A stretch of DNA of 64,000 nucleotides, taken from contig NZ_JACONW010000011.1 in assembly GCF_014357575.1 (NCBI RefSeq), positions 1-64,000 on the forward strand, read 5' to 3'. Positions within the stretch are counted from its first letter, which is position 1; each line of letters starts with the position of its first letter. A program made the translations under genes and the position numbers. This DNA is from Pseudomonas folii (GTDB taxonomy: Bacteria > Pseudomonadota > Gammaproteobacteria > Pseudomonadales > Pseudomonadaceae). The notes under the pieces were generated by a model. It searched no databases and was not told where the DNA came from. It saw only the letters and a program-made list of their open reading frames with translations. Below are positions 37,171-52,412 of the stretch, piece by piece.

Positions 37171-39006
37171 ATGTGTGGAATCGTCGGCGCAGTCGCTGAA
37201 CGCAACATCACCGCCATCCTGATCGAAGGCCTCAAGCGCCTGGAATACCGTGGATACGATAGCGCTGGCGTTGCGGTGTTCAGCAATGCCGGTGTGCTCG
37301 ATCGTCGCCGTCGTTCCGGCAAGGTCAGCGAACTGGAGCAGGCGTTGGCAGGCGAGCCACTGCTGGGCCGTCTGGGTATCGCCCACACCCGTTGGGCGAC
37401 CCACGGCGCACCCTGTGAGCGTAATGCCCACCCGCATTTTTCTGGCGATGAACTGGCGGTTGTCCACAACGGCATCATCGAGAACCATGAACCCCTGCGC
37501 GAGCGCCTCAAAGGCTTGGGCTATGTATTTGTGTCCGATACGGACACTGAAGTCATCGTCCACTTGCTGCACCATAAGCTCAAGGACACACCTGACCTGA
37601 CAGTTGCGCTTAAAGCTGCCGTCAAAGAGCTGCACGGCGCATACGGTCTGGCAGTGATCAGTGCCAAACAGCCAGACCGACTGGTCGCCGCCCGCAGCGG
37701 CAGTCCGCTGGTAGTGGGGCTGGGCCTTGGAGAGAACTTCCTCGCGTCCGACCAAATGGCGCTGCGTCAGGTCACCGATCGCTTCATGTACCTGGAAGAG
37801 GGCGATATCGCCGAGATTCGTCGTGAAAGCGTGCAGATCTGGTCGTTGGATGGCTTGCCGGTTGAACGTGAAGTCGTGCAATACCGTGAAGGCGCAGAAG
37901 CGGCCGACAAAGGCGAGTTCCGCCACTTCATGCTCAAGGAAATCCACGAGCAACCAAAAGTAGTGCAGCGCACGCTTGAAGGCCGTCTCGGCCAGCAGCA
38001 GGTTCTGGTGCAAGCGTTTGGTCCGCAAGCAGCCGAGTTGTTCGCCAAAGTGCGCAATGTGCAGATCGTTGCCTGCGGTACCAGCTACCACGCCGGCATG
38101 GTCGCGCGTTACTGGCTGGAAGGGCTGGCAGGTATTCCATGTCAGGTGGAAGTTGCCAGTGAGTTCCGTTATCGCAAAGTCGTGGTACAGCCGGACACGT
38201 TGTTTGTCTCGATTTCCCAGTCCGGCGAAACCGCTGACACCCTGGCCGCATTACGCAACGCCAAAGAGCTGGGCTTTCTCGCCAGCCTCGCCATCTGCAA
38301 CGTCAGCATCAGCTCGCTGGTTCGCGAGTCCGACCTGACGTTGCTGACCCAGGCCGGTCCTGAAATCGGTGTGGCGTCCACCAAAGCCTTCACCACTCAA
38401 CTGGTCGCGCTGCTGTTACTGACCCTGTCTCTGGGCCAGGTTCAGCGCACATTGGAAGAGGGGGTTGAAGCCGAGCTGGTTGAAGAACTGCGTCGTCTGC
38501 CGACTCGTCTGGGTGAAGCGTTGGCCATGGATAGCACCGTCGAGAAAGTCGCCGAGCTGTTCGCCGAAAAGAACCACACCCTGTTCCTGGGGCGTGGGGC
38601 TCAGTTCCCGGTAGCTATGGAGGGTGCGCTCAAGCTCAAAGAGATCTCCTACATCCACGCCGAAGCCTATCCGGCGGGTGAGCTCAAGCATGGTCCTTTG
38701 GCGCTGGTCGACAGCGACATGCCGGTCGTGACCGTTGCGCCCAACAACGAGCTGCTGGAAAAGCTGAAGTCCAACCTGCAGGAAGTCCGCGCCCGCGGCG
38801 GTGAATTGATCGTCTTCGCTGACGAACAAGCTGGTATGAGCAACGGCGAAGGCACACACGTCATCGCCATGCCGCACATCATCGATGCGCTGGCACCGAT
38901 CCTCTACACCATTCCGCTGCAGCTGCTTTCGTACTACGTGGCGGTGTTGAAGGGCACGGATGTGGATCAGCCGCGTAATCTGGCGAAGTCGGTGACGGTG
39001 GAATGA
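37171..39006 (+). CDS. glmS: Glutamine-fructose-6-phosphate aminotransferase
   Basis: A 611-residue enzyme of the first step of amino-sugar synthesis. The N-terminal Ntn glutaminase has catalytic C2 (MCGIVGAV), and two SIS isomerase domains follow ([20 protein letters not shown]). It ends in LAKSVTVE, the sequence that overlaps the Tn7 target-recognition site. The accessory region begins right after it. Confidence 0.98.
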
Positions 39007-39031
39007 TTAGCCAAGGCTAAGGCGTGATTGG
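38970..39031. mobile_element. Predicted attTn7 target region at the glmS 3' end
   Basis: The last codons of glmS and the bases after it correspond to the conserved Tn7 target, with insertion normally about 25 bp past the stop, near 39031. No complete Tn7-like transposase genes are present, but the following 12 kb is accessory. This is position by established knowledge; I could not find a duplicated target. Confidence 0.55.
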
Positions 39032-40188
39032 TCCTAGGTATTAAAAACTGTCGCAGATTGCTGGACTAGCGACACTATTGCTGATGACCCTTGGGGATTA
39101 AATCTGTCGCAGCTTTCTCGCGGGGGCGTAGCTGCAATGGTGGGCCCACAGGCGGTACCATTGGTACGCCGAGTTTTGTGAGGAAATTGTGTATAACCTG
39201 CTACGTGATGATATTGATCTTGAGTCCTTGGATTTATTTCCCAAGGGAGAGTCAGATGAAACGTTCAGATCAATAATTGCGAGATACTCAATCTTAAACT
39301 GTGATGGGTGATGCTTCGCTTGGAGTAGTGGCAGGGTTGGCACAGTTTGCCGCAGCACAGGGGCCGGGACAGCCTGCTCGACATACTTACGAAGGTGCGG
39401 ACAAAGGGCTGAGCATTGAAGAAATCCTGTGTTGTGACTAGCGTATGCCACCCGCCGAAGCGCAGGCCGTTTTCTGCAAGCTACTCCACCACTCCACTCG
39501 CCCCAAGGCATTCGCACATCTCACCGAACAGCCGGTCACAGTCACTAAACCCGTAGAGCTTGGCCAGGAGATACAGCGCGTCATGGATGGCGCCAGCCAG
39601 GAGGGTTATGGAGGGCGGCGCCGAATTACCCCATTTGCCGACGCAAGACTGGTCTACTTCCAAACCGGCACAACCCCAGCATAGGCAATGGTTCGCCCGG
39701 AATCAGACTATGTCTCAGAGATCTCGGCGAGTGGGTCAATCCTACATTGGCCCCAACACCGCTACGGGTCCGTATCCACGCGTGCAGATTTAGACATCCG
39801 CGTTCCGGCCCTATGCTGTGCGACGGATGCTCGAAGCCTGGCGGGCTTAGATGCACTCCTCAGCAGGTAAAGCGTTGCGTTCATAGAGTTGGAATCTTCA
39901 AGAGGCAGCAATACTACGTGGTGACCTTCATTGTCATAAGGGAAACCACTTCCTGAATCTTTGTTACGCTCATCTAAATTATACCATGATATAAAAATCC
40001 GATTCTAATGCTGCAATCATTAATTTACAGGGGCATCTTCGCAGCGACAGCTGTGGCTACAAGAACGAACAGCAAATGAACGAAGCTCTCGTGCTAGGCA
40101 AATCCAATTAGTCGGTGCGATGATGAGCTGTCAGCGCCGACATATGGGGCGCAATCAATTTTTTCACCTTCTCATTCCGGATTTACCT
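39007..40188. other. Gene-poor stretch after glmS with decayed fragments
   Basis: No convincing complete gene. CTGTCGCAG occurs twice in direct orientation (39049 and 39104) with AGCGACAC between them, possibly end repeats of a lost Tn7-like element. A 58-codon open stretch without a start codon (about 39129-39305; contains EEIVYNLLRDDIDLESLDLF) looks like a gene remnant. A 79-codon forward frame at 39445 and a 60-codon reverse frame at 39663 overlap, and neither is recognisable. Confidence 0.5.
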
Positions 40189-41028
40189 ATGAGTGTTCCT
40201 ATAGATGTAGCTGTGCCTTTTTCCAATAAATACATGACTTATCTGCATCGAGTTGTCTTTTGGGCGTTGTTGCTATTAGCGCTGGGGTGGTGTCTCTACG
40301 CCTTGCGAGCCAACCTATTTAAAATGCTTGTGAATTTTGAATTCTTCGGGGCGCTCAAAACCCTTTATATCATTGGTTTTACTGCGAGCTTTTGGCCGCT
40401 GGTTTACATGGAGACGGTGGAATACATCTACTCCCGTATGGGAAAGAATGGCCGCCAGAGCTTGGAATATGCCAAATCACTCCAGAAAGACCTGGTGGTC
40501 ACAACGCTTACTGCGCTAGCGTTAGCTTGTATTTACTGGCTCGACTCAGCTAGCTATGGGCTTTCAGGGATTGATATCGCTTTCGTTGGATTCCCATTGC
40601 TGATCAGTTCTTTGTACACGATGATTCAGTGCACGAAGGTTAAGATCGCTGGCAAATATGTGCGAAGGGGAGCGATCGCGTTTAATTTCTTCAAAACCCT
40701 GGCGTTCACTTCCGTAGCATTTTGGCTGCTGATTAAAAACTCGTCTGGGGAGCTGAAGACTGATCAAGCCCTTTATCTTCAAATTTCGGTGCTGTTGATC
40801 GGGCTGCATTTCTTTCTGACGAACAATCTCGTTTACTTGATGTTTAAGCAAGGCCGGGTCGAACCTTCTGCGTTCAGGCATTATTTTGTGCACCATGTGA
40901 TCAGGTCTAAGCACGGGCTATACAACATGATGGAAGCCGAGATGGCTCCACTGAATCGCCGGTTGCAGGCGGAAAAAGCCAAGCATGCGCAAGAGGTACG
41001 CAAACGTCAGAAGAAAAACCCGCGCTGA
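40189..41028 (+). CDS. Unrecognised multi-spanning membrane protein
   Basis: A 279-residue protein with about six hydrophobic segments (roughly residues 18-38, 50-75, 100-118, 125-145, 165-185 and 200-225) and a long, very basic C-terminal tail (EKAKHAQEVRKRQKKNPR). I prefer the ATG at 40189 (MSVPIDVAVPFSNKYM). An upstream ATG at 40120 would add 23 residues, and neither has a strong ribosome-binding site. I do not recognise a family. It stands alone in the glmS-side accessory region. Confidence 0.65.
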   Translation: MSVPIDVAVPFSNKYMTYLHRVVFWALLLLALGWCLYALRANLFKMLVNFEFFGALKTLYIIGFTASFWPLVYMETVEYIYSRMGKNGRQSLEYAKSLQKDLVVTTLTALALACIYWLDSASYGLSGIDIAFVGFPLLISSLYTMIQCTKVKIAGKYVRRGAIAFNFFKTLAFTSVAFWLLIKNSSGELKTDQALYLQISVLLIGLHFFLTNNLVYLMFKQGRVEPSAFRHYFVHHVIRSKHGLYNMMEAEMAPLNRRLQAEKAKHAQEVRKRQKKNPR

Positions 41029-41078
41029 ATTGAAGCATCGAACGTTAAAGTCTGGACATCCATTCTCTGAACTGTTGA

Positions 41079-41345
41079 AAGGCACGCAAAAAAGCCCGGA
41101 AAGCTCCAGCGGTCAAGCTAGCCGTCAATGCTTGGCAAAAGGCGCTGAGCAGCTATGTGCCGGTATTGATCCAGTTCAAGACCGACCCTAACGCGGTGCC
41201 ACTGCCACCGCATATCAAGCTCGGCCAGGCGAAAAAATTTGCCAGTACGTTGCCTGAGGGCGATCCGGACGAGGCAGGCGTTCTCAAGCAGACGGAGAAG
41301 CAGATCCTGAGCAGCATTCTGCCAGGAAAGGGCAAGGACGCATGA
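41079..41345 (+). pseudogene. C-terminal remnant of an unidentified basic protein
   Basis: From a stop at 41076 an open frame of 88 codons runs through a Lys/Arg-rich start (KARKKARKAPAVKLAV) and a Pro-containing middle (NAVPLPPHIKLGQAKKF), ending in LPGKGKDA. It looks like a true coding C-terminus lacking its 5' part. The source protein is not recognised. Confidence 0.4.
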
Positions 41346-41998
41346 ATGCCTCGGCGCCGACGACGCTGCCGAACGGTTCGGTCAGGGTGAAGCGTTGACA
41401 GGGGAAACCGATGGGCCAGCCATTGAGCCGCGTAATCAGGAATCCGGGATGCCGATACTGTTAACCGAAGCAGAACGCAATACTGAGCATGGCGTTATAC
41501 GCCAGTCATGCTCTGATCCCGCGCGGTCGGAGACCCTGTGCACGTCGGGAAGTCCTCCGCACAGAAACTGGGAGATCTCGGCAATTCCCGGTGCGCAAGC
41601 ACCGGGCGGAGCAGGAAAGGCCAAAAGCCGTAGACATCGAAAGATTTTTCGTCGATGGGATTCAGAAAGACCCAATGCAGCGATGGATTGAGCGACACAG
41701 CTAAGACCCGAGATTGCGATGAGACTTACTCCTCGCCTACTCAAAGCTGCTTTCGGCGGGGAAAGCCACTTAGCCATGCTTACGCGTCGGTCCGTTATTT
41801 TTCGCTCTACTTGATCTTCCCAATCTGAATGGATAGTTTGGTGCCGTCCTACCTGCGACTGGGCGAGTAGCTAACCGGGACACGACCGCTGCTTTACCAA
41901 ACCTGCATCTTGGCTTTCTAAATCAAGGCTGACAGTAAATATAAAATCTTGCCTGCGTGTAGCACGCTGACTGTCTCCTGACTTAAGGAAGCTTCGCC
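41346..41998. other. Non-coding stretch before the CxxC protein gene
   Basis: I see no convincing gene in these 650 bp. Short overlapping frames occur on both strands. AGCGACAC occurs again near 41684. TAAATATAAAAT at 41936-41947 could hold the -10 of the following gene. A ribosome-binding site TAAGGAAG precedes the next ATG. Confidence 0.4.
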
Positions 41999-42880
41999 AT
42001 GCCCGATGTTATTGACCAAGCTGTAGCGTTTTTGCGTGCGTATTATGCCGAGCAAGGCATTCTCATCCGCTCTGCTCATGCGCACGCAGCGGTGGCAAAT
42101 TATCTTGGCTTCAATTCCAAAATTGCACTCAAGAGTGATCACGATTTTGACTCGCACGATCAGAACCTGATCGCCTACCGCAACACGACACTGAAACTCC
42201 TCCACCAGCACATTCCCAAGATGAAGCCCACGCCACTCCAGTCATTGGACGTAACTGAGCTTGGGCTATTCATCCGTGCCGGGTTGATGCCCCCTTGCCA
42301 GGCTTGTGCGGTTAGGGCACCCACTGTGCGGCACTTTGTCGGTGGTGCCGATCATCCGCATGGCTGGCTTTGCCACCAGTGTTCTGACGGTTTTGAAATC
42401 AACTTCACATTCAAATGGTTGGAGCATGCGCCAGCGTTTCCTGAACGCGTAGCGCATGTGAAGATTAGCGTTACACCTCCGCGCAATTTGCCCGAAGAAA
42501 CCCTCCAGCGCATGGTGTTTGTGCTTCCAGAGTTCTTCGAAACTCCGCCAGATGGCTATGAATCCGAATCTATGCGTGTCGACTCGGCCTATTTCAATCG
42601 TGTCACTGCAGTTGGACAAGTGGTCGATAGACGCAACAGCCAGCGTCATGTACTGAGCTATCACCTCGTACAGAACGCATGGCTGGGTACCGTTTTCCAC
42701 TACTGCGGCACTGTCGATCGGCAACAGTACGAGGCAAAGATCAAGGCAAAAATGCGCGAAAACATCATTGGTACCGTGGTGCGTTATTTGGCTGGCAGCC
42801 TGCCTGACTCTCGCTTGCTCAGCAAAGAAACACACCGTCATTATGTAGACTCTCTGCCTACTCATATCCCCGAAATCTGA
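41999..42880 (+). CDS. Hypothetical protein with paired CxxC motifs
   Basis: A 293-residue cytoplasmic protein. The N-terminal 70 residues (with ILIRSAHAHAAVANYLGFNS) resemble short helical domains found at the start of proteins on integrative elements. Two CxxC pairs in the middle (PPCQACAV, about residue 98, and WLCHQCSD, about residue 123) suggest a zinc ribbon. The C-terminal region is unrecognised. A good ribosome-binding site (AAGGAAG) precedes the ATG. Function unknown. Confidence 0.7.
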   Translation: MPDVIDQAVAFLRAYYAEQGILIRSAHAHAAVANYLGFNSKIALKSDHDFDSHDQNLIAYRNTTLKLLHQHIPKMKPTPLQSLDVTELGLFIRAGLMPPCQACAVRAPTVRHFVGGADHPHGWLCHQCSDGFEINFTFKWLEHAPAFPERVAHVKISVTPPRNLPEETLQRMVFVLPEFFETPPDGYESESMRVDSAYFNRVTAVGQVVDRRNSQRHVLSYHLVQNAWLGTVFHYCGTVDRQQYEAKIKAKMRENIIGTVVRYLAGSLPDSRLLSKETHRHYVDSLPTHIPEI

Positions 42881-43406
42881 ATGTAGATTCAGTTAACCAA
42901 GTGCCTGCGAGGATGGGAGGTACAGCATTCATCTCCAACCACTCAGCCACAGCTACCTAGCCCTAATGGCCAGGTAGCTGCGTGAGCGCTCGGATCGTTC
43001 TCGCACTCAAGCGAAGCGGTCGACGGCGTTATCTGAGTGAAGGGTGAGAGCGAGTGTTGACGCCGATGTTGAATTGACCCAGTTGCCGAGATTTCACTGA
43101 CCTAGGCTGATTCGTCGCGAACTATTGACTATGGCGGGTTTTTGCCTATTTGGAGGTGGGTCAGTCTTGCGTCGGCATATAGTTCGATTCGGTATCGGCC
43201 TCAACAATTATGGGCTCGAAATACTTTAGAGAGCTAAGGGCTTTACCAAAGGAGGTTAAAAGCGTGCGGACGTGGGCACAACAGCAGCTTGCCCGAAAAA
43301 TGCTCCCCACGCTCAATTGAATTGACATTGAGTTCTGGTATTTGCTTTGCAGCTGGTCGGTCGATAGTAATCCGCCGCTGGCTATGGCTGGCGGCATACC
43401 ATGGTG
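42881..43406. other. Intergenic stretch with hairpin and possible insertion-sequence debris
   Basis: A 9-bp inverted repeat, CAGCTACCT / AGGTAGCTG (42950-42958 and 42972-42980), may terminate the preceding gene. Further on, AATTGACCCAG near 43073 and GGTGGGTCAG near 43155 form a partial inverted pair reminiscent of debris around IS21-type elements; this is a weak impression. No gene is supported. Confidence 0.4.
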
Positions 43407-44318
43407 TTATTTAATAAAGGCCCGGCCGACCAAGTTTCGAGTTTTTGCTATGACATCGTATTCTGGTCTATCGTTGGAGTAGTAAGTCATATATTCGTCA
43501 AACATATGGTCGAACGCAAAATTAAGTGGCATGATATCACATCCTAATTTAAGATATTCGCTGAGCGCGGCTTTGTCGGCCGGTTCCAAGATAATATCTT
43601 TCTTTGAAATGTGTTGCTTTCCATTGATTGAACAATACTCATCCTTGAATTTTGAGCTTAAATTATATGGAATTCGCGACGATGACTTTGTCTGCTTCCA
43701 AGCGACCTTTGTTAGCAAGTGGGAATGTAGGTTCGCTAATTGAATGCATTGTTTGACAAAGCCGCCGAGCGATGTAATCGAACTCTTTAGTTCTTCATCA
43801 TTTTCAAATGGCGAGTTAAGTGGCATTCTATATGAATAATACTCGCGTAAAAACCTTAGATTTTCCACCTTTTTTTTAGCGTCGGCGTGAATGATACTGT
43901 TGTGGCTGTGCGCATAGGTTGAGTAAAAAACGTTTAGCATTTTGCTGTGACTTATATCGTAAACGTTTTTTGTGGTTTGTTGCGGATTGAGATATATCAC
44001 AGACCACATAGCATGAAGCGCAGAATAATATCCGAGATAATATGCGGCTGCCATGACACCTTCTTTTTCTGCCTTCTTTGACTCAAGGGCAAAATTGGTT
44101 GCGCTGAAACATAGTTTTAACGATTGACGAGCGCGCACTGACCATATCGCAGTTTCGTAGTCGTTCCAAGTGCCTACTAATGCGTGATACTTTCTCATCC
44201 AGGTATCGTGATACTCCTGCCTGGCACTGTTTGTGCGTAAATTCATGTCCAGATGATGAAAGCTGCAAATATATTCAAAATACGTTGATAGCGGTTTCCA
44301 GTTAGCTTCGATGGCCAT
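43407..44318 (-). CDS. AT-rich hypothetical protein, possibly HEPN-like
   Basis: A 303-residue, mainly helical protein. The base composition is clearly more AT-rich than the neighbouring core genes, and the codons are unusual for this chromosome, which points to recent transfer. AAYYLGYYSALHAMWSVIYL followed by a second helix with HSHNSIIHADAKKKV and LREYYSYRM recalls the helix pattern of HEPN-fold proteins, but no clear RX4-6H motif was identified. It lies near the HNH/ATPase cluster on the opposite strand. Confidence 0.65.
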   Translation of the reverse strand: MAIEANWKPLSTYFEYICSFHHLDMNLRTNSARQEYHDTWMRKYHALVGTWNDYETAIWSVRARQSLKLCFSATNFALESKKAEKEGVMAAAYYLGYYSALHAMWSVIYLNPQQTTKNVYDISHSKMLNVFYSTYAHSHNSIIHADAKKKVENLRFLREYYSYRMPLNSPFENDEELKSSITSLGGFVKQCIQLANLHSHLLTKVAWKQTKSSSRIPYNLSSKFKDEYCSINGKQHISKKDIILEPADKAALSEYLKLGCDIMPLNFAFDHMFDEYMTYYSNDRPEYDVIAKTRNLVGRAFIK

Positions 44319-44844
44319 TGATCTCTTCTTGGGCGATTGTTTTTTTGAGGTGGTGGATAGTGCTGATGTGGATGCATGTCTTTATAACACAACCTGATAT
44401 ATCTCTACCTCTGATGCTCATCGGTGGCGTAGGGTATGAAACACGTCAAGCGCTGCCGAGGTTTTCCAGCGGCAAAAATTTGCGATTGACGAATTGGTGT
44501 TCGATCGGGTGCTCAGTAGATGGAACTGATACGGTGATCAATTATGTAGCGAGAGGCTGATCATATTAAACCCGGGGTGGAAAAACACTGAGTAACACAG
44601 TATTTTCTAGTCACGTAGCCGCTTACAGGGTCGGTTGAGCTAGTTCGTTGAATGCTTTTAGGTGCCAGCGATACCAGGGTGTGTAATCGTCTACGCCGAT
44701 GGTAATGACTTCCAGCTAGCACCGCTCGACTCCGTCGGCCTGGATGTGTCGGCCGAAGACAATGCAAGTGTTAATAGCTCGGATACGGTCGATCACGCTT
44801 AGAAATAGCATCGTGGAAACCCTGGTGCTTTTTGGGAGATAAAG
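44319..44844. other. Intergenic stretch with a decayed minus-strand gene
   Basis: On the minus strand from about 44795 to 44631 a coding-like frame (VIDRIRAINTCIVFGRHIQ, then a TAG, then LEVITIGVDDYTPWYRWH and LKAFNELAQPTL) suggests a truncated gene with an in-frame stop. The rest shows nothing clear. GGGAG at 44834 is the ribosome-binding site of the next gene. Confidence 0.4.
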
Positions 44845-47091
44845 ATGATTTACGTCGACCGTTCCCGTATACCCATGCCGGAAAAACTCGGAGCCTCAAG
44901 CACTGGTGGAACCGAATTGCGACAGGCGAAGGAATTCTTCCGAGATAAGAAGAACGCTCAGCGCCGCTTCGAGTTCCGCGTTATGCACCTTCGCGAGGTA
45001 CGTACTGCGCTTAGGGAATTGTTTTTCAATAAATGTGCTTATTGTGAGAGCTTTCTCCAGGTCGTCGCAGGCGAAGTGGACATGTATCGGCCAAAGGGTG
45101 GCGTGTCAGAAAATGCATTGCACCCAGGTTATTGGTGGTTGGCTGCTGAATGGAACAATTTGCTGATCGCCTGCCCCGACTGCAATCGCCAGCGCAGCCA
45201 CGGCCTTGCCGATGATCACAAGGGGGTCAGCGGCAAGGGCAACAGATTCCCATTGTTAGATGAGTCAGCGCGATGCTTTGGCCCGCAAGACGACATATCT
45301 CTAGAGCAGCCATTGCTGTTGAACCCATGCGCTGACGATCCTGACGAGCACTTGGTGTTCGATTGGAATGGCCTAGTAACCAGCGATACTCTTCGCGGAC
45401 AAACAACTATTACCGTCTTGGGCCTGAACCGCCCGGCGATTGTAGAAGCGCGGGCTCGAGAGGCTGAGATGTTTCGCTTCATGCTTAGCCAAGCAAACCT
45501 CTCCGTCGCGGGGGCGTCATCAACCACGACATTAGCATCTATCCTGAATGCTGTGGCGTTAGGAGTCGCTCCATACGCAGGTATGAAACGGCAGTTGCTC
45601 CGTAGAGCGCGGACCGAGCTCAAATATGTAGGGGGGCGTGACAAGGCTCCTATCAGCGCTGCACGACAGAAGCGAGCTAAGCGTGCTCTACAACAATTCG
45701 AGGCTGAGCAGTCTACTTACACTCTCGCTGACGAAGCAGGGCGCAGGATTGCACGGTCTCAGCAGCGCGCGATCGAGCGCATTTCGCTGCAAAACTTCAA
45801 AGGTTTGCGAGATGTTAAAATTGAGGTAGCAAAAAATGGAAATGGCGCTGGGTGGCTAATGCTGCTTGGTGAGAACAGCACGGGAAAGAGTTCAATTCTC
45901 CAGGCTATCGCTCTATGCCTAGCCGGAGCCGACTACTTCGCGACACTTGTGAACGACGGCAGAATAGTTCCGCGGGAACTCATTAATTCACGTACTCGGC
46001 GATGCACGATCAGCATCAAGCTGTCAGGATTTGTTGCTCCCCACCGGATGACCATAACTGCATCCGGAACGACCTTCGAGAGCCCATCTGGGAAATCCGC
46101 TGAGGTAACGGTATCCAAGCGCGAGGTTGTGGTATCAGGTGATAGCGAAGCTCGCTCGGCGCAGCTGGTACTGCTCGCCTATGGCGCTACTCGTCTGCTG
46201 CCACACAAGAGTCCAGCGCGATATGGCCTTGAGTTTGCGCGCATCGATAATCTCTTCGATCCTTTCCTCCCTTTGTTCGATGCCAACGAATGGCTTCTAA
46301 AACTCAATAGCAGAACATTCGCTAATGTTGCACTGATCCTCAAAGATCTGATGTCACTCGACGATGCCGCCCTATTGCATCGGCAAAAATCCCGCGTGTA
46401 TGTTCACAGCCATGGAGACAACGCACCCATCCAACGGTTAAGCGATGGATTCCAATCCGTGGTCGCTATGAGCGTGGATATCTTGGAAGCTGCAATGCGT
46501 CTTTGGGGCAATTCCGAGACCGCCGAAGGTATTGTGTTGCTGGACGAAATCGGAGCTCATCTGCACCCGTCTTGGAAAATGAAGATCGTTTCCAGCCTGC
46601 GTCGCGCCTTTCCCGGCATCCAGTTCATCGTCACAACGCATGACCCATTATGTCTGCGTGGGCTGACCGAGGGGGAGGTGGTGGTAATGCGTCGTGACGA
46701 AGAGGGGCAGGTTGAGCCAGTTGCGGACCTCCCCTCACCTGGTGACTTCCGCGTCGATCAACTGCTCACGTCCGAGTTTTTTGGGCTTAACAGCACTGTG
46801 GATCCTGAAACTGAAGCTCTCTTTGATCGCTACTATGCGTTATTGGCCCTCAATCAACGCACTGCAGAGCACGAACAGGAGCTGGACCGACTTCAAAAAG
46901 TCCTGCGCGACCGCCGCTACGTTGGTGACACTGTGCGTGAACAGCTCATGTTCGAAGCTGTTGATAAAGTCCTCGCACAGCACCTCGTTGCAGGCAACTT
47001 CTCGATGCCGGAAATGAAGCAGGAGGCCGCCAAGGAGCTGGCTGAGATGTGGGATTCGACTGTGTCCGGCCTTGATGAGACCTCCCCATGA
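44845..47091 (+). CDS. HNH-AAA ATPase fusion protein (Septu PtuA-like with N-terminal PtuB-like domain)
   Basis: This 748-residue fusion begins with an HNH domain of the PtuB/TIGR02646 type (about residues 55-180): C64-x2-C67, then VDMYRPK (D79-M80), WNNLL, and C110-x2-C113-NR. An SMC/ABC-like AAA ATPase follows (about 315-690), with Walker A GENSTGKSS at 342-350, signature-like LSDGF, Walker B with D567-E568, and an H-loop TTHD. The expected catalytic His at position 80 is Met, so the fused nuclease may be inactive. The ATG overlap with the next gene implies coupling. Defence against phage is the likely role, by analogy with Septu. Confidence 0.85.
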   Translation: MIYVDRSRIPMPEKLGASSTGGTELRQAKEFFRDKKNAQRRFEFRVMHLREVRTALRELFFNKCAYCESFLQVVAGEVDMYRPKGGVSENALHPGYWWLAAEWNNLLIACPDCNRQRSHGLADDHKGVSGKGNRFPLLDESARCFGPQDDISLEQPLLLNPCADDPDEHLVFDWNGLVTSDTLRGQTTITVLGLNRPAIVEARAREAEMFRFMLSQANLSVAGASSTTTLASILNAVALGVAPYAGMKRQLLRRARTELKYVGGRDKAPISAARQKRAKRALQQFEAEQSTYTLADEAGRRIARSQQRAIERISLQNFKGLRDVKIEVAKNGNGAGWLMLLGENSTGKSSILQAIALCLAGADYFATLVNDGRIVPRELINSRTRRCTISIKLSGFVAPHRMTITASGTTFESPSGKSAEVTVSKREVVVSGDSEARSAQLVLLAYGATRLLPHKSPARYGLEFARIDNLFDPFLPLFDANEWLLKLNSRTFANVALILKDLMSLDDAALLHRQKSRVYVHSHGDNAPIQRLSDGFQSVVAMSVDILEAAMRLWGNSETAEGIVLLDEIGAHLHPSWKMKIVSSLRRAFPGIQFIVTTHDPLCLRGLTEGEVVVMRRDEEGQVEPVADLPSPGDFRVDQLLTSEFFGLNSTVDPETEALFDRYYALLALNQRTAEHEQELDRLQKVLRDRRYVGDTVREQLMFEAVDKVLAQHLVAGNFSMPEMKQEAAKELAEMWDSTVSGLDETSP

Positions 47092-48047
47092 TTCGCATTG
47101 AGAAAAACGCACAGACTCCAGCGCTGGATGTTTTCACGCATGCGTCGGTAGGTCCCAAAAACCAGAAGAAAACCCGTGCTGCAGCCGAGCTTGAAAGAGC
47201 GATAGCTTTTTTTACCAACCCTTCGAATTTCGCTAATGAGGAGAAGCTTTGTAAAAAGTCCTTCAATTTCGCCGTATACAAAGACAAGACGTTGGCTGAA
47301 AAGCTGGCGGGTATATTTGGCCGGAAATGCGCTTACTGTGAGAGCCGGGTGGCCCATGTAATGCCGAGGGAGATTGAACACTTTCGGCCCAAATCGGCGG
47401 TAGAGAACCCTACTCAGCCCGCGTTGCGTCCCGGCTACTACTGGCTAGGTGGCGACTGGACCAACCTATTGGTTGCATGCGTGGACTGCAACCGGGCACG
47501 AAACCATACGGTGCCAGGTCAGTCGGCTTCTGTGCGACTCGGGAAACATGCGCAGTTCCCTCTGGCGTTAGAGAATCAGAGGGTGCGTTTGCACGGGAGC
47601 GACATCTCTGCAGAAGAGCCCCATCGTTTGCTGATCCATCCATGCATAGATCAGCCTGAGGAGAGGTTCAAGTACGATGACGACGGACTGATCCTACCCA
47701 GAGATCCTCAAGATCTGCAGGCGACTACCTCCATCACGGTTTATGCATTGCAGCGCAAGTATCTGGTTGAGGAACGCAAGCGCGTACAGAACGATCTAGT
47801 GTTTAAGTTGGAGCTATTGAAATCCCTAGGCGCTGAATTCAACAGCATGCACGGTAGGGCGTCCCGCGCCGACCTTGATGAAAAGCGTCGTCAGCTGAAC
47901 CTTCAAATGAGTTCGATTCGGCAGATGTTTGAGCCGGACGCCCCGTTTCTCGGTATGGTGAGGGACTATGTGCGTCGTCATGTAGCGGCAGGCCACTACA
48001 ATGATCTTCTCCGCGCTGGACTTGATCTGCGTCGACTTGTGCCATAA
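47088..48047 (+). CDS. HNH endonuclease, PtuB-like
   Basis: A 319-residue HNH protein of the same family as the preceding N-terminal domain. The motif set is complete: C81-x2-C84, E97-H98-FRPK with the general-base His, WTNLL, and C131-x2-C134-NR. The C-terminal half is helical and unassigned. It overlaps the fusion gene by 4 bp (ATGA), so the two are made together. It may supply the nuclease activity missing from its partner. Confidence 0.85.
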   Translation: MIRIEKNAQTPALDVFTHASVGPKNQKKTRAAAELERAIAFFTNPSNFANEEKLCKKSFNFAVYKDKTLAEKLAGIFGRKCAYCESRVAHVMPREIEHFRPKSAVENPTQPALRPGYYWLGGDWTNLLVACVDCNRARNHTVPGQSASVRLGKHAQFPLALENQRVRLHGSDISAEEPHRLLIHPCIDQPEERFKYDDDGLILPRDPQDLQATTSITVYALQRKYLVEERKRVQNDLVFKLELLKSLGAEFNSMHGRASRADLDEKRRQLNLQMSSIRQMFEPDAPFLGMVRDYVRRHVAAGHYNDLLRAGLDLRRLVP

Positions 48048-48146
48048 CGGCCCTGTATCAACCGACACAGCACTGGGCGTCCTCTGGATGTTGGTCGGGC
48101 TGGCGCACCGACACGACGCGCTGGCCAAGATCTAGGTTAGTGTCAA

Positions 48147-48386
48147 ATGAGTGAAAAGGGCCAAGCGACTCTCAAATATCATGAGGCTGACGACCGCCGC
48201 GGACTTCTTCATCGAACTTCTTCGGGATGTTCTGTTGAAGCAATGAACATCAGCAGTGGTGATTCGCAGGGTGTCGAGTTGGTTAACCGCACCTTAGTGC
48301 TCACACCTGCTCGCGACGCAGATCCCAATTCTGAGTCAACTATCATTCAGGGTGAGTCGAGAAAGGCGTGCGATGTCGAGATATAA
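48147..48386 (+). CDS. Doubtful small ORF between two HNH genes
   Basis: A 79-codon frame beginning MSEKGQATLKYHEADD in the 325-bp gap between the second and third HNH genes. It overlaps the third gene's start by 14 bp. There is no good ribosome-binding site and no recognisable domain. It could be a real small component or chance. Confidence 0.25.
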   Translation: MSEKGQATLKYHEADDRRGLLHRTSSGCSVEAMNISSGDSQGVELVNRTLVLTPARDADPNSESTIIQGESRKACDVEI

Positions 48387-49158
48387 ATTCTCCAGCGAGC
48401 AACGGTACGCAATATTTCTAGCCCACGGTATGAAATGCTACCTGTGCAAGGCCCCAGTCGATCTTATTTCAATGGTCGTCGACCATGTTCTGCCAGAGCA
48501 CCTCCTCGACATCCCCTCGTTACTCCACTCCGCTAAGTCGAATCTCGGGCTATCCGCATCGTTCGATCTAAATTCGTTCGAAAATTGGATGCCGGCATGC
48601 AGTTCATGCAATGGGACGAAGTCATCAGTCCAATTTGAGCCTACTCCGCTTGTCCAGATACTCCTGCAAAAACTTGCAAAAAAGGCCGACGAAGCACGTA
48701 GGCTTTGCGCAGAGGTCGTTAGCAACAGACAGGTGTCTGTCGCCCTCAACGTGTTGGAACGAGCGCAGGGGAGTGACTGGAAGTTTGAGGGGACGGCACG
48801 AGGACGGTTGCAGGCCCTTTTGCGATTTGCCTCATTGCGCGCGCTTGTGCCTAGCGGCCAGCCACTTCGTTTGACGCCCTCGTTTCAGCTAGTGACCACC
48901 TCGATCAAGGATGCAGCACGTTGGGGAGCGAGTCATTGGTCGATCCCCCCTCGAGATCAGGGAGAGCCATCACTGGTTGTGCTGTTCCGGGCGGAACGAG
49001 GCGAGTGCGTTGAGTGTGGCTTGATCCAGCGGGTGTACCAGCCTATCAATCAGGAGGGTGGCAGTGACCCGATCTGCGGCGTGTGCCTGTCGAATCTCGA
49101 CTGGATGGATCCTGTGGCCTTGGGAGAATTGCCAACTCACATAACCGGGGAATTTTGA
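48373..49158 (+). CDS. HNH endonuclease with C-terminal zinc ribbon
   Basis: A 261-residue protein. The HNH core is near the N-terminus: C22-x2-C25, D37-H38-VLPEH, N71, C76-x2-C79-N80 and K83. A helical middle follows, then a C-terminal four-Cys ribbon (C212, C215, C235, C238). I start at the ATG at 48373, preceded by GAGAAAGG. The HNH subtype differs from the two upstream PtuB-like domains (DHVLPEH instead of EHFRPK). It may belong to the same defence unit or be a separate acquisition. Confidence 0.8.
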   Translation: MSRYKFSSEQRYAIFLAHGMKCYLCKAPVDLISMVVDHVLPEHLLDIPSLLHSAKSNLGLSASFDLNSFENWMPACSSCNGTKSSVQFEPTPLVQILLQKLAKKADEARRLCAEVVSNRQVSVALNVLERAQGSDWKFEGTARGRLQALLRFASLRALVPSGQPLRLTPSFQLVTTSIKDAARWGASHWSIPPRDQGEPSLVVLFRAERGECVECGLIQRVYQPINQEGGSDPICGVCLSNLDWMDPVALGELPTHITGEF

Positions 49159-49455
49159 GCGAAGAATTCGCCTGACCCTAGAGCGGGTAATTCATTCGCA
49201 TTAGGTTCGGGAGCCCGAGCAGGAAACAGCTCCTGAGCACCTCCTCGTGGCTGCCAATCGGGAAGATCTGCAAGAGGACATTGTTTGGCAGGCTAGATTT
49301 GTGACGCTGCAACAACCGGCTTCTGCGCTGATGGCGGCACTGAGGCCTTGCTTTGCCAATGTCTGAACGTACATGCCGCACGTACGCAAGGGACCTTCGA
49401 AGATGTTCATCGGGGGAGTGACCTGCCTGGCGGCTGGTCACTCAACGGCGTTCAC
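49159..49455. other. Short gap with a possible frameshifted minus-strand remnant
   Basis: On the minus strand two frames could be parts of one broken gene: one holds FEGPLRTCGMYVQTLAKQGL (about 49400-49300), and another ends VLLQIFPIGSHEEVLRSC plus a short tail at 49178. Neither is recognised. No other feature is seen. Confidence 0.3.
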
Positions 49456-49719
49456 TCAGGAAAGGTCCCAATTTACGTTATCGAAGAAATTCATACTCAC
49501 TTCGATCTGTAGCGAGCCGTGTTGATCGAGGAGCTTTGTTCGCAGAGGCTGTGTAGCCACTCCCTCGAAGTCGAGGACGTAGTAATACGTCATCGAACCA
49601 TCGTCAGAGGTCATTGCCTCTGGCTCTACGTCTATCAGGGTCTCCGCCTCCTCGACGGTAATCCCTAGCTCGTTTGAAAGAGCATTTTCGAGCGAGGTGA
49701 GGGGAGGTCGTGAAAGCAC
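49456..49719 (-). CDS. Small acidic hypothetical protein
   Basis: An 87-residue acidic protein starting at GTG (MLSRPPLTSLENALSNELG) and ending NFFDNVNWDLS. It has no membrane segments or recognisable domain. The protein-like composition and the aromatic/acidic C-terminus suggest a real gene, perhaps an immunity-type or antitoxin-type protein. The start and function are uncertain. Confidence 0.45.
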   Translation of the reverse strand: MLSRPPLTSLENALSNELGITVEEAETLIDVEPEAMTSDDGSMTYYYVLDFEGVATQPLRTKLLDQHGSLQIEVSMNFFDNVNWDLS

Positions 49720-50131
49720 TACGTCCCAATCTGAGTGCCGCTGGTTTCGAAGATCCGTCTAGAGCAATGCCACACTTCTAGGAGCCGTATATGGCGAGGC
49801 AAAGTGTCCAAGACAGTGCAGAGTGGGAGACTGGCGAGATCCAGGGCACTTCGCTCCAACTATCCGGCCCGGTCGAACTCTTGTTTTAATTCAGAAATTC
49901 GATCGGGATAGGAGGCATTTGAGGAGAATGGCTACGGGCTGCGACAGTCCAGACCCAGCCTGCTACTTCCCGAACCTGAAGATATGCGGTTCTGACGGCG
50001 GGTAAGTCTGGCGTCCGCGGATGGGGCGATATGGCTTAAGCGCGAACACGAGGCTTGCTGAATTAGCCAAATCCTAAGTTGATAAGAGAGGCTAGGCCCC
50101 GCGGGCCTACCTCTCCCCCCTCAGTGTTTTA
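49720..50131. other. Gene-poor stretch with a strong hairpin
   Basis: A 32-codon frame at 49791-49889 has a good AGGAG ribosome-binding site but no recognisable product. CTGCGACAG at 49939 is the inverse of the CTGTCGCAG repeats next to glmS. A strong stem (GAGAGG, bulged C, TAGGCCC pairing with GGGCCTA, CCTCTC; 50087-50116) lies just past the stop of the minus-strand gene and is its probable terminator. Confidence 0.45.
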
Positions 50132-50416
50132 TTACTGGAAGAAGTTGATGATGATTTTCATTAAAAAACCTATTACGGCACTCCGCAATGCAGGCAATAC
50201 CCACCTCCACTGAAGCTTATTCAAGGGTGGGGTAATATTTATGGTCACGTTATTATGCTGGCCAGACAGCACCAAGATAAAAACTTGGGGCCTAGAATTT
50301 CCAATGCCAGTGGAATTCTTGCTCGAATTTCGATCATTGAATTGCATAAAAATGCCTTTGAAAAGTTGAGAGAGGGTCAACAGGTCAAAAGGCAGAGCGG
50401 AGCCTATGGCGATCAA
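50132..50416 (-). CDS. Hypothetical protein with C-terminal membrane segment
   Basis: A 94-residue frame with a hydrophobic C-terminus (WVLPALRSAVIGFLMKIIINFF) and a polar N-terminal half. It overlaps the upstream gene by 32 bp in another frame. It could be a second gene of a pair, or the C-terminal part of one gene broken by a frameshift. It is followed by a strong hairpin. Confidence 0.4.
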   Translation of the reverse strand: MIAIGSALPFDLLTLSQLFKGIFMQFNDRNSSKNSTGIGNSRPQVFILVLSGQHNNVTINITPPLNKLQWRWVLPALRSAVIGFLMKIIINFFQ

Positions 50417-50843
50417 TACTCAACTCGGCATCGTAGGCAAAAAGAGGGGTACGCAAAAAAGCGTTCAGTGCAGCTGAAGCGCGTGCACAGTTAATTGCAG
50501 AAAGTAGGAACGCAGCGAAAAGAATTACGATTCGGTTGAAAATATCGCGAAGTGCAGATTGGCGGAAATGATCCTGACGAAAATCGTAAAATCCATAAAC
50601 GCCGTAACTGAGGTCTTCGGTAAAGGTAACTAGAGTGCCATTTCTACGTATGCAACGGAGGCTCTCCGGTTCCTCCGTAATGTCTAGCAGGTCCAGGGCG
50701 GCTTTGGCGCGTGCTACCGCTGCTGAATCTCGATTAGGATCAATTGCAAAGTCGCGAACATATTTATCCGCTCGGCGATATGTCGCCGAGTAATTTTCAG
50801 ACTCCTCCTCCAGTTCACGGTCAAACTCATCCCAGCTCAACAT
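50385..50843 (-). CDS. Hypothetical protein with one membrane segment
   Basis: A 152-residue protein. The acidic N-terminus starts MLSWDEFDRELEEESENY. A central region has GTLVTFTEDLSYGVYGFYDF. A hydrophobic segment (IVILFAAFLLSAINCARASA) lies near residues 105-125. Not recognised. It may form a unit with the overlapping downstream frame. Confidence 0.5.
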   Translation of the reverse strand: MLSWDEFDRELEEESENYSATYRRADKYVRDFAIDPNRDSAAVARAKAALDLLDITEEPESLRCIRRNGTLVTFTEDLSYGVYGFYDFRQDHFRQSALRDIFNRIVILFAAFLLSAINCARASAALNAFLRTPLFAYDAELSIDRHRLRSAF

Positions 50844-51419
50844 AAGTGATCACCCGTAACGGTTGCTCCATCGTGGTTTCAGACTCCCATACCTTACCCT
50901 CGTATGGCCTTCACGCCAATCCTACCGATGTAACAAAACGAGTCTTTACTGGTGAATGCAAATCCGGCTCAAGGGCATCCGCTTTCGACCGTACTTTACC
51001 GAGTGTGGCGCTCTGTAGGCTTTGCTACTCTTATTGCTTTGCATTCACCCTTGATGGGTGGCAGGCGTCCTCGGAGGATTTGTGCGTCATTTGAGGAGTG
51101 CAACTGGATGACGTAGGTAGTAACTCACCTACTCAACGCCGTTTTCAGTGCAGTAGTAGCCGGTCTCGGAGTTGTGTTTTGCCTAAATATCCAAAGTCGA
51201 GTCTGGAAAAGCGACACACAGCCGTTTTGTGTTTTACCTTAATTCGATGGCGGATCTGCACGCATCGCTGAGAGCTCCGAAATTCGCGTATCACTGTGTT
51301 GTACGTTTTTATCCATGAACAATAGCAGTTCCTGGCCCAGCCCCGGATAATCAGGGTAAAAAGCATCCTATGCCCCACCACCCCATATCATCCAGACAAT
51401 AGAGCGATGCCTGAACCCC
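50844..51419. other. Gene-free stretch at the right edge of the accessory region
   Basis: No supported gene in 576 bp. AGCGACAC occurs at 51210, as it does near glmS. The next gene at 51420 resumes core-like composition, so the right boundary of the accessory region probably lies here. No clear target duplication is visible. Confidence 0.45.
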
Positions 51420-52412
51420 ATGAGAAAAACCACTCAGCAGTTAATGGTTCAGAACATTGCCGACTGGCAGCATCGAGGTTTGATCGACCAGCAAACCCAA
51501 GAGCGGCTGAGCGCGCCTTATCAGCGTCCTGACCAATTGTTATCCACGGTGCTGCAATGGCTAGGCATCGGTGCGGTGTTATTGATTGGTATGGCAATCC
51601 TGGGGGGTGTGAGTTATCTCAGCGAGTCGGTCACCCTCGGCGTTGTGCTGTTTTCTATCGCCGGTGTGGCATTGTGGTGGGTCGGGGTACGCCTGGCGCG
51701 TGATCCAGCCGGGCGTATGCCGGTGGCTGGTGTTGCCATTTTGACCATCGGCCTGATGCTGATCGGCGGTAGCCTGTTACTCAGTGGAGTTGACTCCGAC
51801 GTGGGCGGGTATGATCGGATCCCTCTGGCACTGCTGGTCACCGCCTTGCTGAGTGTGGCCACTGCCTATCGTTACCACCTGCGCTGGCCATTGTTTCTTG
51901 GGCTGCTGTGCGCCTTTCACGGCTTTGGCTCCTGGGAGAGTTATGCCGGTAGCGGGTCATATGTGTTCGATATTCAGGACCCGCGAGCCATGGCAGTGAT
52001 TGCCGGATTGGCAGCGCTGCTGGGGCTTTGGCACCAGCAGGCTGAAGAAAGGCCGCTCCGCCACTTCAGCGGTTTCGGGCGTTTGTATGTGATTTTCGGA
52101 CTGCTCTACTTCAACTGCTCGCTGTGGTTTCTCAGCCTGGACAATTACCACTCGTCCCAATCAGGGCTCTCGATACTGCTATTCACCGTAGGGGCCATCA
52201 GCCAGTTGGTGATCGGTGCTCGTTTCAAACACCCTAGCTTCACCGGGTTTGGTGTGGTGTTTCTGGGTATCAACCTCTACACGCGCTTTTACGAACACGC
52301 CTGGGACCGCCTAAGTGTCGCGGCTTTTTTCGCGGCGGCCGGTGTTGTGGGTGTTTTGTTGGGCTGGTTGTTTGAGCGCGCGGCGCTACGTGCCAAGGAG
52401 GATCGGCCATGA
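51420..52412 (+). CDS. DUF2157-type multi-spanning membrane protein
   Basis: A 330-residue protein. A short cytoplasmic N-terminal part (QQLMVQNIADWQHRGLIDQQ) matches the DUF2157 start, and is followed by about eight to ten hydrophobic segments. Its last codons overlap the next gene by 4 bp. Function unknown. Confidence 0.8.
   Translation: MRKTTQQLMVQNIADWQHRGLIDQQTQERLSAPYQRPDQLLSTVLQWLGIGAVLLIGMAILGGVSYLSESVTLGVVLFSIAGVALWWVGVRLARDPAGRMPVAGVAILTIGLMLIGGSLLLSGVDSDVGGYDRIPLALLVTALLSVATAYRYHLRWPLFLGLLCAFHGFGSWESYAGSGSYVFDIQDPRAMAVIAGLAALLGLWHQQAEERPLRHFSGFGRLYVIFGLLYFNCSLWFLSLDNYHSSQSGLSILLFTVGAISQLVIGARFKHPSFTGFGVVFLGINLYTRFYEHAWDRLSVAAFFAAAGVVGVLLGWLFERAALRAKEDRP

What the first reader, a model, noticed from the sequence alone, without database searches (positions are those of the whole stretch)
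44845..49158. Septu-like defence cluster with a nuclease-dead HNH fused to the ATPase and two further HNH proteins
Known Septu systems pair an ATPase (PtuA) with an HNH nuclease (PtuB). Here the ATPase carries its own N-terminal PtuB-like HNH. That domain has VDMYRPK where the active family has E-H-F-R-P-K, so Met80 replaces the general-base His, while the zinc cysteines remain. The next gene, coupled by ATGA, has the intact motif at E97-H98. A third HNH gene of another subtype follows. A fused pseudo-nuclease that could dock or restrain an active partner nuclease would be a new architecture. The sequence features are seen; defence function is inferred from Septu.
Basis: partly seen in the sequence, partly recalled or inferred. 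Interest (0 to 1): 0.8.

Follow-up and report, generated by a model that had tools for sequence, protein, structure and literature searches.

The report
Septu defence with built-in dead nuclease
A two-gene bacterial anti-phage system of the Septu type, in which the energy-using protein carries a fused copy of the partner nuclease that has lost its key catalytic residue while the separate partner keeps it, a pattern that recurs across many bacteria and suggests the dead copy has a new, testable job.

Summary
Window 44845-47091 encodes a 748-aa protein with an N-terminal PtuB-like HNH domain and a PtuA-like ABC ATPase. Its gene overlaps by ATGA that of a separate PtuB-like HNH (47088-48047). The fused domain has D79-M80 where the partner has E97-H98; four zinc Cys and the HNH Asn remain. 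The pattern recurs. In 55 collected fusions the catalytic acid-His pair is intact in 5, against 54 of 54 adjacent partners and 16 of 16 PtuB from loci without a readable fusion (one of these an IS-truncated fusion). The Cys and Asn are kept in 55 of 55. In relatives the fused domain is under purifying selection, and the fusion ATPases group together. So this is a Septu variant with a conserved pseudo-nuclease; three relatives lie beside Gabija, Lamassu or DndH-like genes. PADLOC's PtuA1 models already span such fusions, so the architecture is catalogued. The dead/live division was not described in any paper my ten searches surfaced; two key papers are not held. The third HNH gene is a chance neighbour (0 of 198 other genomes). 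What the dead domain does (scaffold, brake or sensor) and the defence activity itself are inferred, not shown.

The parts
44845..47091 (+). Fusion gene: PtuB-like pseudo-HNH + PtuA-like ABC ATPase, 748 aa (P0001)
   Evidence: (PDLC00292, residues 1-739, 1e-236)
44845..45495 (+). N-terminal PtuB-like domain, about residues 1-217; catalytic His replaced
   Evidence: PDLC00328 PtuB1 residues 1-222, 4.3e-63; profile of this part matches solved PtuB chains
45034..45183 (+). Zinc/HNH core of the fused domain: C64, C67, D79, M80 (codon 45082-45084), N105, C110, C113
45760..47058 (+). PtuA-like ABC ATPase, about residues 306-738
   Evidence: Pfam AAA_21/AAA_15; model fits solved PtuA, best Z 22.3, 304 aligned, rmsd 4.8
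45865..45894 (+). Walker A LGENSTGKSS, residues 341-350
   Evidence: invariant G342, G347, K348, S349 in 29 fusions
46525..46569 (+). Walker B EGIVLLDEIGAHLHP, residues 561-575
   Evidence: invariant D567, E568, H572, H574 in 29 fusions
47088..47091 (+). ATGA stop/start overlap of the two genes
47088..48047 (+). Separate PtuB-like HNH nuclease, 319 aa (P0002), motif intact
   Evidence: PDLC00319 2.8e-95; model fits solved PtuB, best Z 15.9, best unrelated chain 6.4
47376..47381 (+). E97-H98 of the partner: catalytic acid and general base
   Evidence: equivalent position E-H in 54 of 54 partners

Best explanation
It is a Septu-type anti-phage operon of two genes. The first encodes a PtuA-like ATPase with a PtuB-like copy fused to its N-terminus that very probably can no longer cut. 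The second encodes the working PtuB nuclease. I think the ATPase assembles as in known PtuA, and that the tethered dead copy sits where nuclease and substrate meet and acts as a fixed non-cutting subunit: it helps hold the active PtuB and nucleic acid in place and keeps the active subunit dependent on the ATPase. Phage infection then switches the complex to cleavage of nucleic acid (DNA or tRNA in studied relatives) and infection aborts. SHOWN here: the genes, their homology, loss of the catalytic His in the fused copy, the intact partner, recurrence in many relatives, purifying selection on the fused copy in relatives. INFERRED: that the fused copy is inactive (from sequence), that the two proteins form a complex, what the dead domain does in it, the substrate, the trigger, and defence itself.
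For: Homology and fold. Catalytic residues: acid-His pair intact in 5 of 55 fused domains, 54 of 54 partners and 16 of 16 PtuB from loci without a readable fusion. In a Septu of E. coli, changes at PtuB H75 or N91 abolished immunity (PMC13096335, passages); matching these to M80/H98 and N105/N126 rests on my motif alignment. That H-to-N spacing of 16 is found in 10 of the 16 PtuB without fusion. Linkage: 54 of 55 fusions have the partner as next gene on the same strand. ATPases of all 55 fusions fall in one group with one IS-truncated relative, apart from 16 other PtuA-like ATPases (SH-aLRT 94, not starred). Maintained: four Cys and Asn in 53 of 53 and in L077 and L078; dN/dS of the fused domain 0.08-0.36 in the 10 of 15 pairs where it could be computed. 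Module identities track each other (Mantel r 0.84-0.92, 53 loci). Defence neighbourhood in relatives: Gabija beside L057, Lamassu proteins beside L061, DndH-like gene near the L004 locus.
Against: No complex was modelled; the fusion model is weak (mean pLDDT 61, pTM 0.46) and low in much of its N-terminal third. Five fusions keep an intact pair, so inactivation is not a requirement of the architecture. The 5-of-55 figure counts related sequences: the fewest changes of the His state on the tree is only 2. Loss of the base need not abolish all activity: 11 of 55 keep the His and 18 of 55 the acid. The fused domain has mostly higher dN/dS than the ATPase and partner, so part of its change may be relaxed constraint; one of the 10 computed pairs (L065/L066) has an intact domain, and none includes the window's own gene (saturated). 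The loci were gathered by likeness to the fusion, so other HNH-ATPase fusions may be missed. Defence neighbours were 10 hand-picked proteins of 7 loci without a control; in the window itself none of the 4 other proteins scanned gave a clear defence hit.
Confidence: 0.55

Rival explanations
1. The dead PtuB-like domain is a brake. It occupies the nuclease or substrate site of the assembly and holds the active PtuB off until a phage signal moves it, doing in protein what msDNA does in retron-Septu.
For: A review (PMC12948488, passages) says msDNA holds PtuAB autoinhibited in Ec83 and is degraded on infection. The window's genome has no reverse transcriptase over the Pfam cut-off; none was seen among the 8 proteins scanned near the pair, nor a retron RNA by Rfam. 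Purifying selection on a domain that probably cannot cut.
Against: Studied two-gene Septu also lacks both RT and a fused brake. No complex model. Two fusion loci lie near RT genes anyway (L056, L060).
Confidence: 0.2
2. The dead domain is a recognition module that senses the phage or chooses the substrate, and changes faster than the rest.
For: Fused domain less conserved than the partner's matching part in 19 of 26 disjoint pairs, and than the ATPase in 21 of 26. L026/L028: upstream flank and fused domain 90-99% alike up to about base 2250, ATPase plus partner 55-79%, downstream flank 92-93%, with the fall near the domain border. L017/L025 shows a weaker form (fused part 96-100%, most of the rest 80-95%).
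Against: Relaxed constraint after loss of catalysis would also speed change. Of 4 pairs laid out, one is a clear mosaic; L037/L063 and L019/L017 show no such break.
Confidence: 0.15
3. The fused domain still cuts, through another residue or metal arrangement, so there are two nucleases.
For: Zn Cys and Asn kept in 53 of 53 plus L077 and L078; 5 of 55 keep the full acid-His pair, L078 with DHFRPK.
Against: His replaced by R, Q, L, M or F in 44 of 55; H and N were both needed in a tested PtuB (PMC13096335, passages).
Confidence: 0.07
4. An inert relic of a duplication and fusion, with no function of its own beyond tethering.
For: The pair is lost in many ways: 17 different non-intact letter combinations among 50 fusions.
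Against: dN/dS 0.08-0.36 in 10 pairs, constant Cys and Asn. One relative lacking the domain was seen, by IS insertion (L070), though the search favoured fused forms.
Confidence: 0.05

Closest known systems
Septu type I (PtuA1 + PtuB1 of PADLOC-DB)
   Same: Both proteins match these models over nearly full length; ATPase plus HNH in one operon; folds match solved PtuA and PtuB.
   Different: In the Septu of the papers I saw, PtuB is one separate, active protein (PMC13096335, passages). Here a second copy is fused to the ATPase and has lost the base. PADLOC's models PDLC00288, 00291 and 00292 span such fusions under the plain name PtuA1.
Retron type I-A (Ec78/Eco7, Ec83/Eco4), also called Septu type II or retron-Septu
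   Same: Same effector pair PtuA and PtuB; titles of solved entries 9nnb, 9nnk and 9e90 give PtuA:PtuB 4:2 or 2:1.
   Different: Needs a reverse transcriptase and msDNA; no retron RNA by Rfam in 39000-51500 and no RVT_1 match over the cut-off in the genome. The fused domain's profile matched PtuB but no PtuA chain among solved structures.
Gabija GajA / OLD-family ATPase nucleases
   Same: Related ABC ATPase with a nuclease in the same chain (recalled).
   Different: Their nuclease is Toprim, active and C-terminal (recalled). Here it is HNH, N-terminal and without its base; the best 25 PADLOC models for P0001 are PtuA, PtuB and a retron I-A ATPase.

Membership tests
Septu type I | PtuA-like ABC ATPase with intact Walker A and B | tested here: met
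   PDLC00292 1e-236; invariant G347-K348-S349 and D567-E568 in 29 aligned fusions; Z 22.3 to solved PtuA
Septu type I | Adjacent PtuB HNH nuclease with intact E-H, N and four Cys | tested here: met
   PDLC00319 2.8e-95; E97, H98, N126, C81, C84, C131, C134 invariant in 8 aligned partners; Z 15.9 to solved PtuB
Septu type I | PtuA is an ATPase alone, with the nuclease only as a separate protein (as in studied systems) | tested here: not met
   PtuB-like domain fused at the N-terminus. PADLOC's own PtuA1 models admit such fusions, so I file it as a variant of Septu, not as a plain member.
Septu type I | Protection from phage needing both ATPase and HNH | not testable with these tools
   Needs phage assays
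Retron type I-A | Reverse transcriptase and msr-msd RNA in the operon | tested here: not met
   No RT domain among the 8 proteins scanned at 40-51 kb; RVT_1 best 28.3 bits, under the 29.6 cut-off, on another contig; no retron RNA by Rfam in 39000-51500
Fused pseudo-nuclease subgroup (proposed here) | Fusion ATPases form one group | tested here: met
   55 fusions plus IS-truncated L070 together, SH-aLRT 94 (not starred), quick tree, root for drawing only

The most novel reading that the evidence does not exclude
A widespread Septu subtype runs on a protein-coded control subunit: a duplicated PtuB, fused to the ATPase, lost catalysis in more than one lineage and became a brake or phage-sensing module that licenses the single live nuclease, in place of the msDNA of retron-Septu.
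Probability: 0.25. Interest if true: 0.75.

Novelty: new variant of a known kind. Interest (0 to 1): 0.56.

Why it matters
How Septu is triggered is a matter of current study, and the retron form uses msDNA as its switch. A natural, repeated conversion of one nuclease copy into a probably non-cutting but conserved subunit tied to the ATPase gives a clean handle: the dead domain can be removed, mutated or swapped to ask how the complex senses phage and keeps its nuclease in check. It also warns that reading these fusions as 'nuclease-ATPase' is likely wrong: the nuclease is the next gene.

Tried and rejected
Third HNH as a member of the system: rejected, 0 of 198 other genus genomes, no match in any held locus outside the window's own, and only 6 plasmid records with partial matches. 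Retron with the RT missed: no RT domain or retron RNA found. A phage origin: 7 phage records match, all in the ATPase part, none over 80% of the query. Sequencing error at M80: not testable on one assembly, but the four relatives in its tree group also lack the His (Q, Q, Q, L). E. coli genomes: no near DNA match. Wider class sample: 1 of 369 genomes, the window's own, matches at E<=1e-40. Phylum sample: 14 of 397 genomes at that limit, of which 3 besides the window carry a full-length fusion and one (G136) the truncated L045. Functions of P0004 and P0005: no family beyond sub-cut-off hits. Island borders by flank comparison: only 3 of 38 relatives, the window's genome among them, hold the right-hand genes, so not resolved. 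The HNH-domain tree is too weakly supported to date the duplication. Joint structure of the two proteins: no tool for it.

Counting rules. The 55 fusions are 30 of the genus sample (L004-L032, the window's L005 among them, and L045), 3 of the phylum sample (L041-L043), 4 named genome contigs (L035-L038), 16 plasmid loci and 2 viral contigs (L077, L078). Dropped as duplicates: L001, L002, L034, L040, L055. A second fusion of G096 (contig C62) was listed but not fetched. Of 106 plasmid records with a match I fetched 20, chosen by hand from the 40 shown. The acid-His letters come from a pattern with three rows (L038, L043, L066) set by hand from the alignment; the two tallies agree. L062 is split over two overlapping frames and was counted as one fusion, its pieces read apart. 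L070 (domain lost at an IS630) is not counted as a fusion; its partner is one of the 16 PtuB without a readable fusion. Whether the other 15 have an RT nearby was not checked. L045 is truncated and has no partner in the 5.9 kb after it. Of 15 hand-picked pairs for dN/dS, 5 gave no value for the fused domain (dS saturated), among them all pairs of the window's tree group; pairs share members. The Fisher tests ignore relatedness and are not used. In drafting I had miscounted two things and mended them on rechecking: 10, not 11, dN/dS pairs; and L057 differs from the core at R82 too.

Literature: 10 searches; I saw listings and starts of abstracts, and passages of PMC8565338, PMC11980606, PMC13096335, PMC12948488, PMC11555353 and PMC12887533. 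Searches found nothing; one search was badly built and listed unrelated papers. The 2024 Septu structure paper (PMC12318543) and the 2020 retron classification (PMC7736814) are not held, so absence from print is claimed only for what these searches reach.
Full report
WHAT IS THERE. The window (in a 64,304-base contig of a 5.96-Mb genome) holds at 44845-47091 a 748-aa gene, overlapped by ATGA by a 319-aa gene at 47088-48047. The genus is inferred to be Pseudomonas: genome G241 of the same genus code has a contig of the same length as a record titled Pseudomonas fluorescens. About residues 1-217 of the first protein are a PtuB-like HNH domain and residues 306-738 a PtuA-like ABC ATPase. Pfam and NCBIfam miss the HNH parts or score them under cut-off; PADLOC models span the whole protein (PDLC00292, 1e-236). 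The second protein is PtuB-like over its length (2.8e-95). Its predicted structure (pLDDT 72.6, pTM 0.74) fits solved PtuB chains with Z up to 15.9 (197 residues, rmsd 3.6), while the best unrelated chain reaches 6.4. The fusion's model is weaker (pLDDT 61.4, pTM 0.46), but its ATPase part fits solved PtuA with Z up to 22.3 (304 residues, rmsd 4.8). A profile of the N-terminal part alone matches 10 solved sequences, all PtuB and none of them a PtuA chain.

THE CATALYTIC DIFFERENCE. The fused domain reads V-D79-M80-Y-R-P-K where the partner reads I-E97-H98-F-R-P-K. Both keep four zinc Cys and the HNH Asn. In a studied E. coli Septu, changes at PtuB H75 or N91 abolished immunity (PMC13096335, passages). 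By motif alignment H75 corresponds to M80 here and to H98 in the partner.

HOW GENERAL IT IS. A search of 398 genus genomes with the fusion model gave 29 fusions that I read (the window's included), plus one truncated. With plasmid records, named genomes, a phylum sample and viral contigs the set is 55 fusions. They come from Pseudomonadota, a Priestia (Bacillota), and Kordia and Saprospira (Bacteroidota, phylum recalled). 54 of 55 have a separate PtuB-like gene directly downstream; the exception, L045, is truncated. The acid-His pair is intact in 5 of 55 fused domains (L035, L065, L066, L067, L078), His is present in 11 of 55 and the acid in 18 of 55. E-H is present in 54 of 54 partners, and E/D-H in 16 of 16 PtuB of loci without a readable fusion. 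The Lys after R-P is kept in 7 of 53 fused domains against 52 of 52 partners, while the four Cys and the Asn are kept in 53 of 53 and in the two added later. In the window's tree group (L004, L056, L057, L061) the pair reads EQ, EQ, DQ, EL; L057 also has H for R82, and otherwise the core stays partner-like.

HISTORY. In a tree of ATPase domains (72 rows, quick method) all 55 fusions group with L070, whose HNH part was lost at an IS630 insertion, apart from the other 16 PtuA-like rows (SH-aLRT 94, just under the starred level). The simplest reading is one fusion event with an originally active copy. The fewest changes on this tree are 2 for His, 5 for the acid and 4 for the pair. Since all partner and unfused PtuB seen have His, at least two losses of His is the likely direction, but the tree is unrooted and its deep forks are partly open. 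The HNH-domain tree keeps the partners together (with L070's) but does not settle when the copy arose.

IS THE DEAD COPY USEFUL. Its dN/dS lies between 0.08 and 0.36 in the 10 of 15 pairs that could be computed; the ATPase and partner values in the same pairs are mostly lower, and no pair with the window's own gene could be computed. With metal-site residues that did not change in this set, I take it as maintained, under looser constraint. It changes faster than its neighbours: less conserved than the partner's matching part in 19 of 26 disjoint pairs and than the ATPase in 21 of 26. One pair of loci (L026, L028) is mosaic: upstream flank and fused domain 90-99% alike, ATPase and partner 55-79%, downstream flank again 92-93%, with the fall near the domain border. 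That hints that ATPase and live nuclease are a matched pair and the dead domain a separable module; it is one clear case of four pairs laid out. Across 53 loci the modules' identities correlate (ATPase-partner 0.92, fused-ATPase 0.88, fused-partner 0.84).

DEFENCE CONTEXT. In the window the neighbours P0004, P0005 and the 40120-41028 protein match nothing known above cut-off, and the third HNH is not linked to the system. Of 10 proteins hand-picked from 7 related loci, L057 has Gabija (GajA and GajB) beside the pair, L061 Lamassu proteins (LmuA, LmuB), the L004 locus (L085) a DndH-like gene about 2 kb upstream of the fusion, L063 a methyltransferase, L060 a retron-type RT, L056 a weak RT match and a protein without a match, and L077 an AriA-like ATPase. 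There was no control, so this supports, and does not prove, a defence role.

HOW IT MOST LIKELY WORKS. Known PtuA and PtuB assemble with two or three ATPases per nuclease (6:2 in a review table, PMC12948488, passages; 4:2 and 2:1 in titles of solved entries). With a PtuB-like copy on every ATPase, the complex here would hold more dead than live HNH folds. I favour a scaffold role, with brake and sensor as live rivals. Studied relatives cut DNA or tRNA-Tyr (PMC11555353 and PMC13096335, passages and abstract); I have no evidence for the substrate here.

NOVELTY AND VERDICT. The fusion is catalogued in PADLOC models; the consistent dead-fused, live-partner division was not described in any paper my ten searches surfaced, of which I read passages of six, and two key papers are not held. 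A new variant of a known kind, with a sharp, cheap experiment attached.

Noticed in passing
window 41311-41536 (+): Rfam group-II-D1D4-6 catalytic intron RNA, 93.5 bits, with no RVT_1 match over cut-off in the whole genome: probably an orphan intron or remnant.
   Followed up: partly
window 37171-39006 and 40-51 kb: The variable genes lie just downstream of glmS, a known Tn7 insertion point (recalled; gene named by recall, conserved in 37 of 38 relatives). Transposition genes were not searched for beyond the 8 proteins, and island borders were not resolved.
   Followed up: partly
L084 5251-7261 (G000 contig C1, about 71250-73260): The same genome carries a second Septu-like pair of ordinary build: separate PtuA (424 aa) and PtuB (255 aa, EHFKPK intact).
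   Followed up: partly
L026 and L028: Mosaic fusion loci: dead domain and flanks nearly alike, ATPase plus partner exchanged as a block.
   Followed up: partly
L060 8141-9154 and L056 10319-11218: Reverse transcriptase genes (L060: retron type III-A-like) near the fusion pair, on the opposite strand.
   Followed up: partly
L078 4992-7217: A fusion on a viral contig with an intact DHFRPK motif in the fused domain and an intact partner; a natural comparison for the dead form.
   Followed up: no
window 48352-49158: Orphan HNH protein (P0003), not linked to the pair; matches to phage HNH families, best 6.1e-11 over residues 7-96.
   Followed up: partly
window 41999-42880 and 43407-44318: Two proteins (P0005, P0004) with no family in Pfam, NCBIfam, PADLOC or PHROGs at the limits used, beyond sub-cut-off Pfam hits.
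   Followed up: no
L070 3626-5413: A fusion relative whose HNH domain is missing at an IS630 insertion, with its partner intact.
   Followed up: partly
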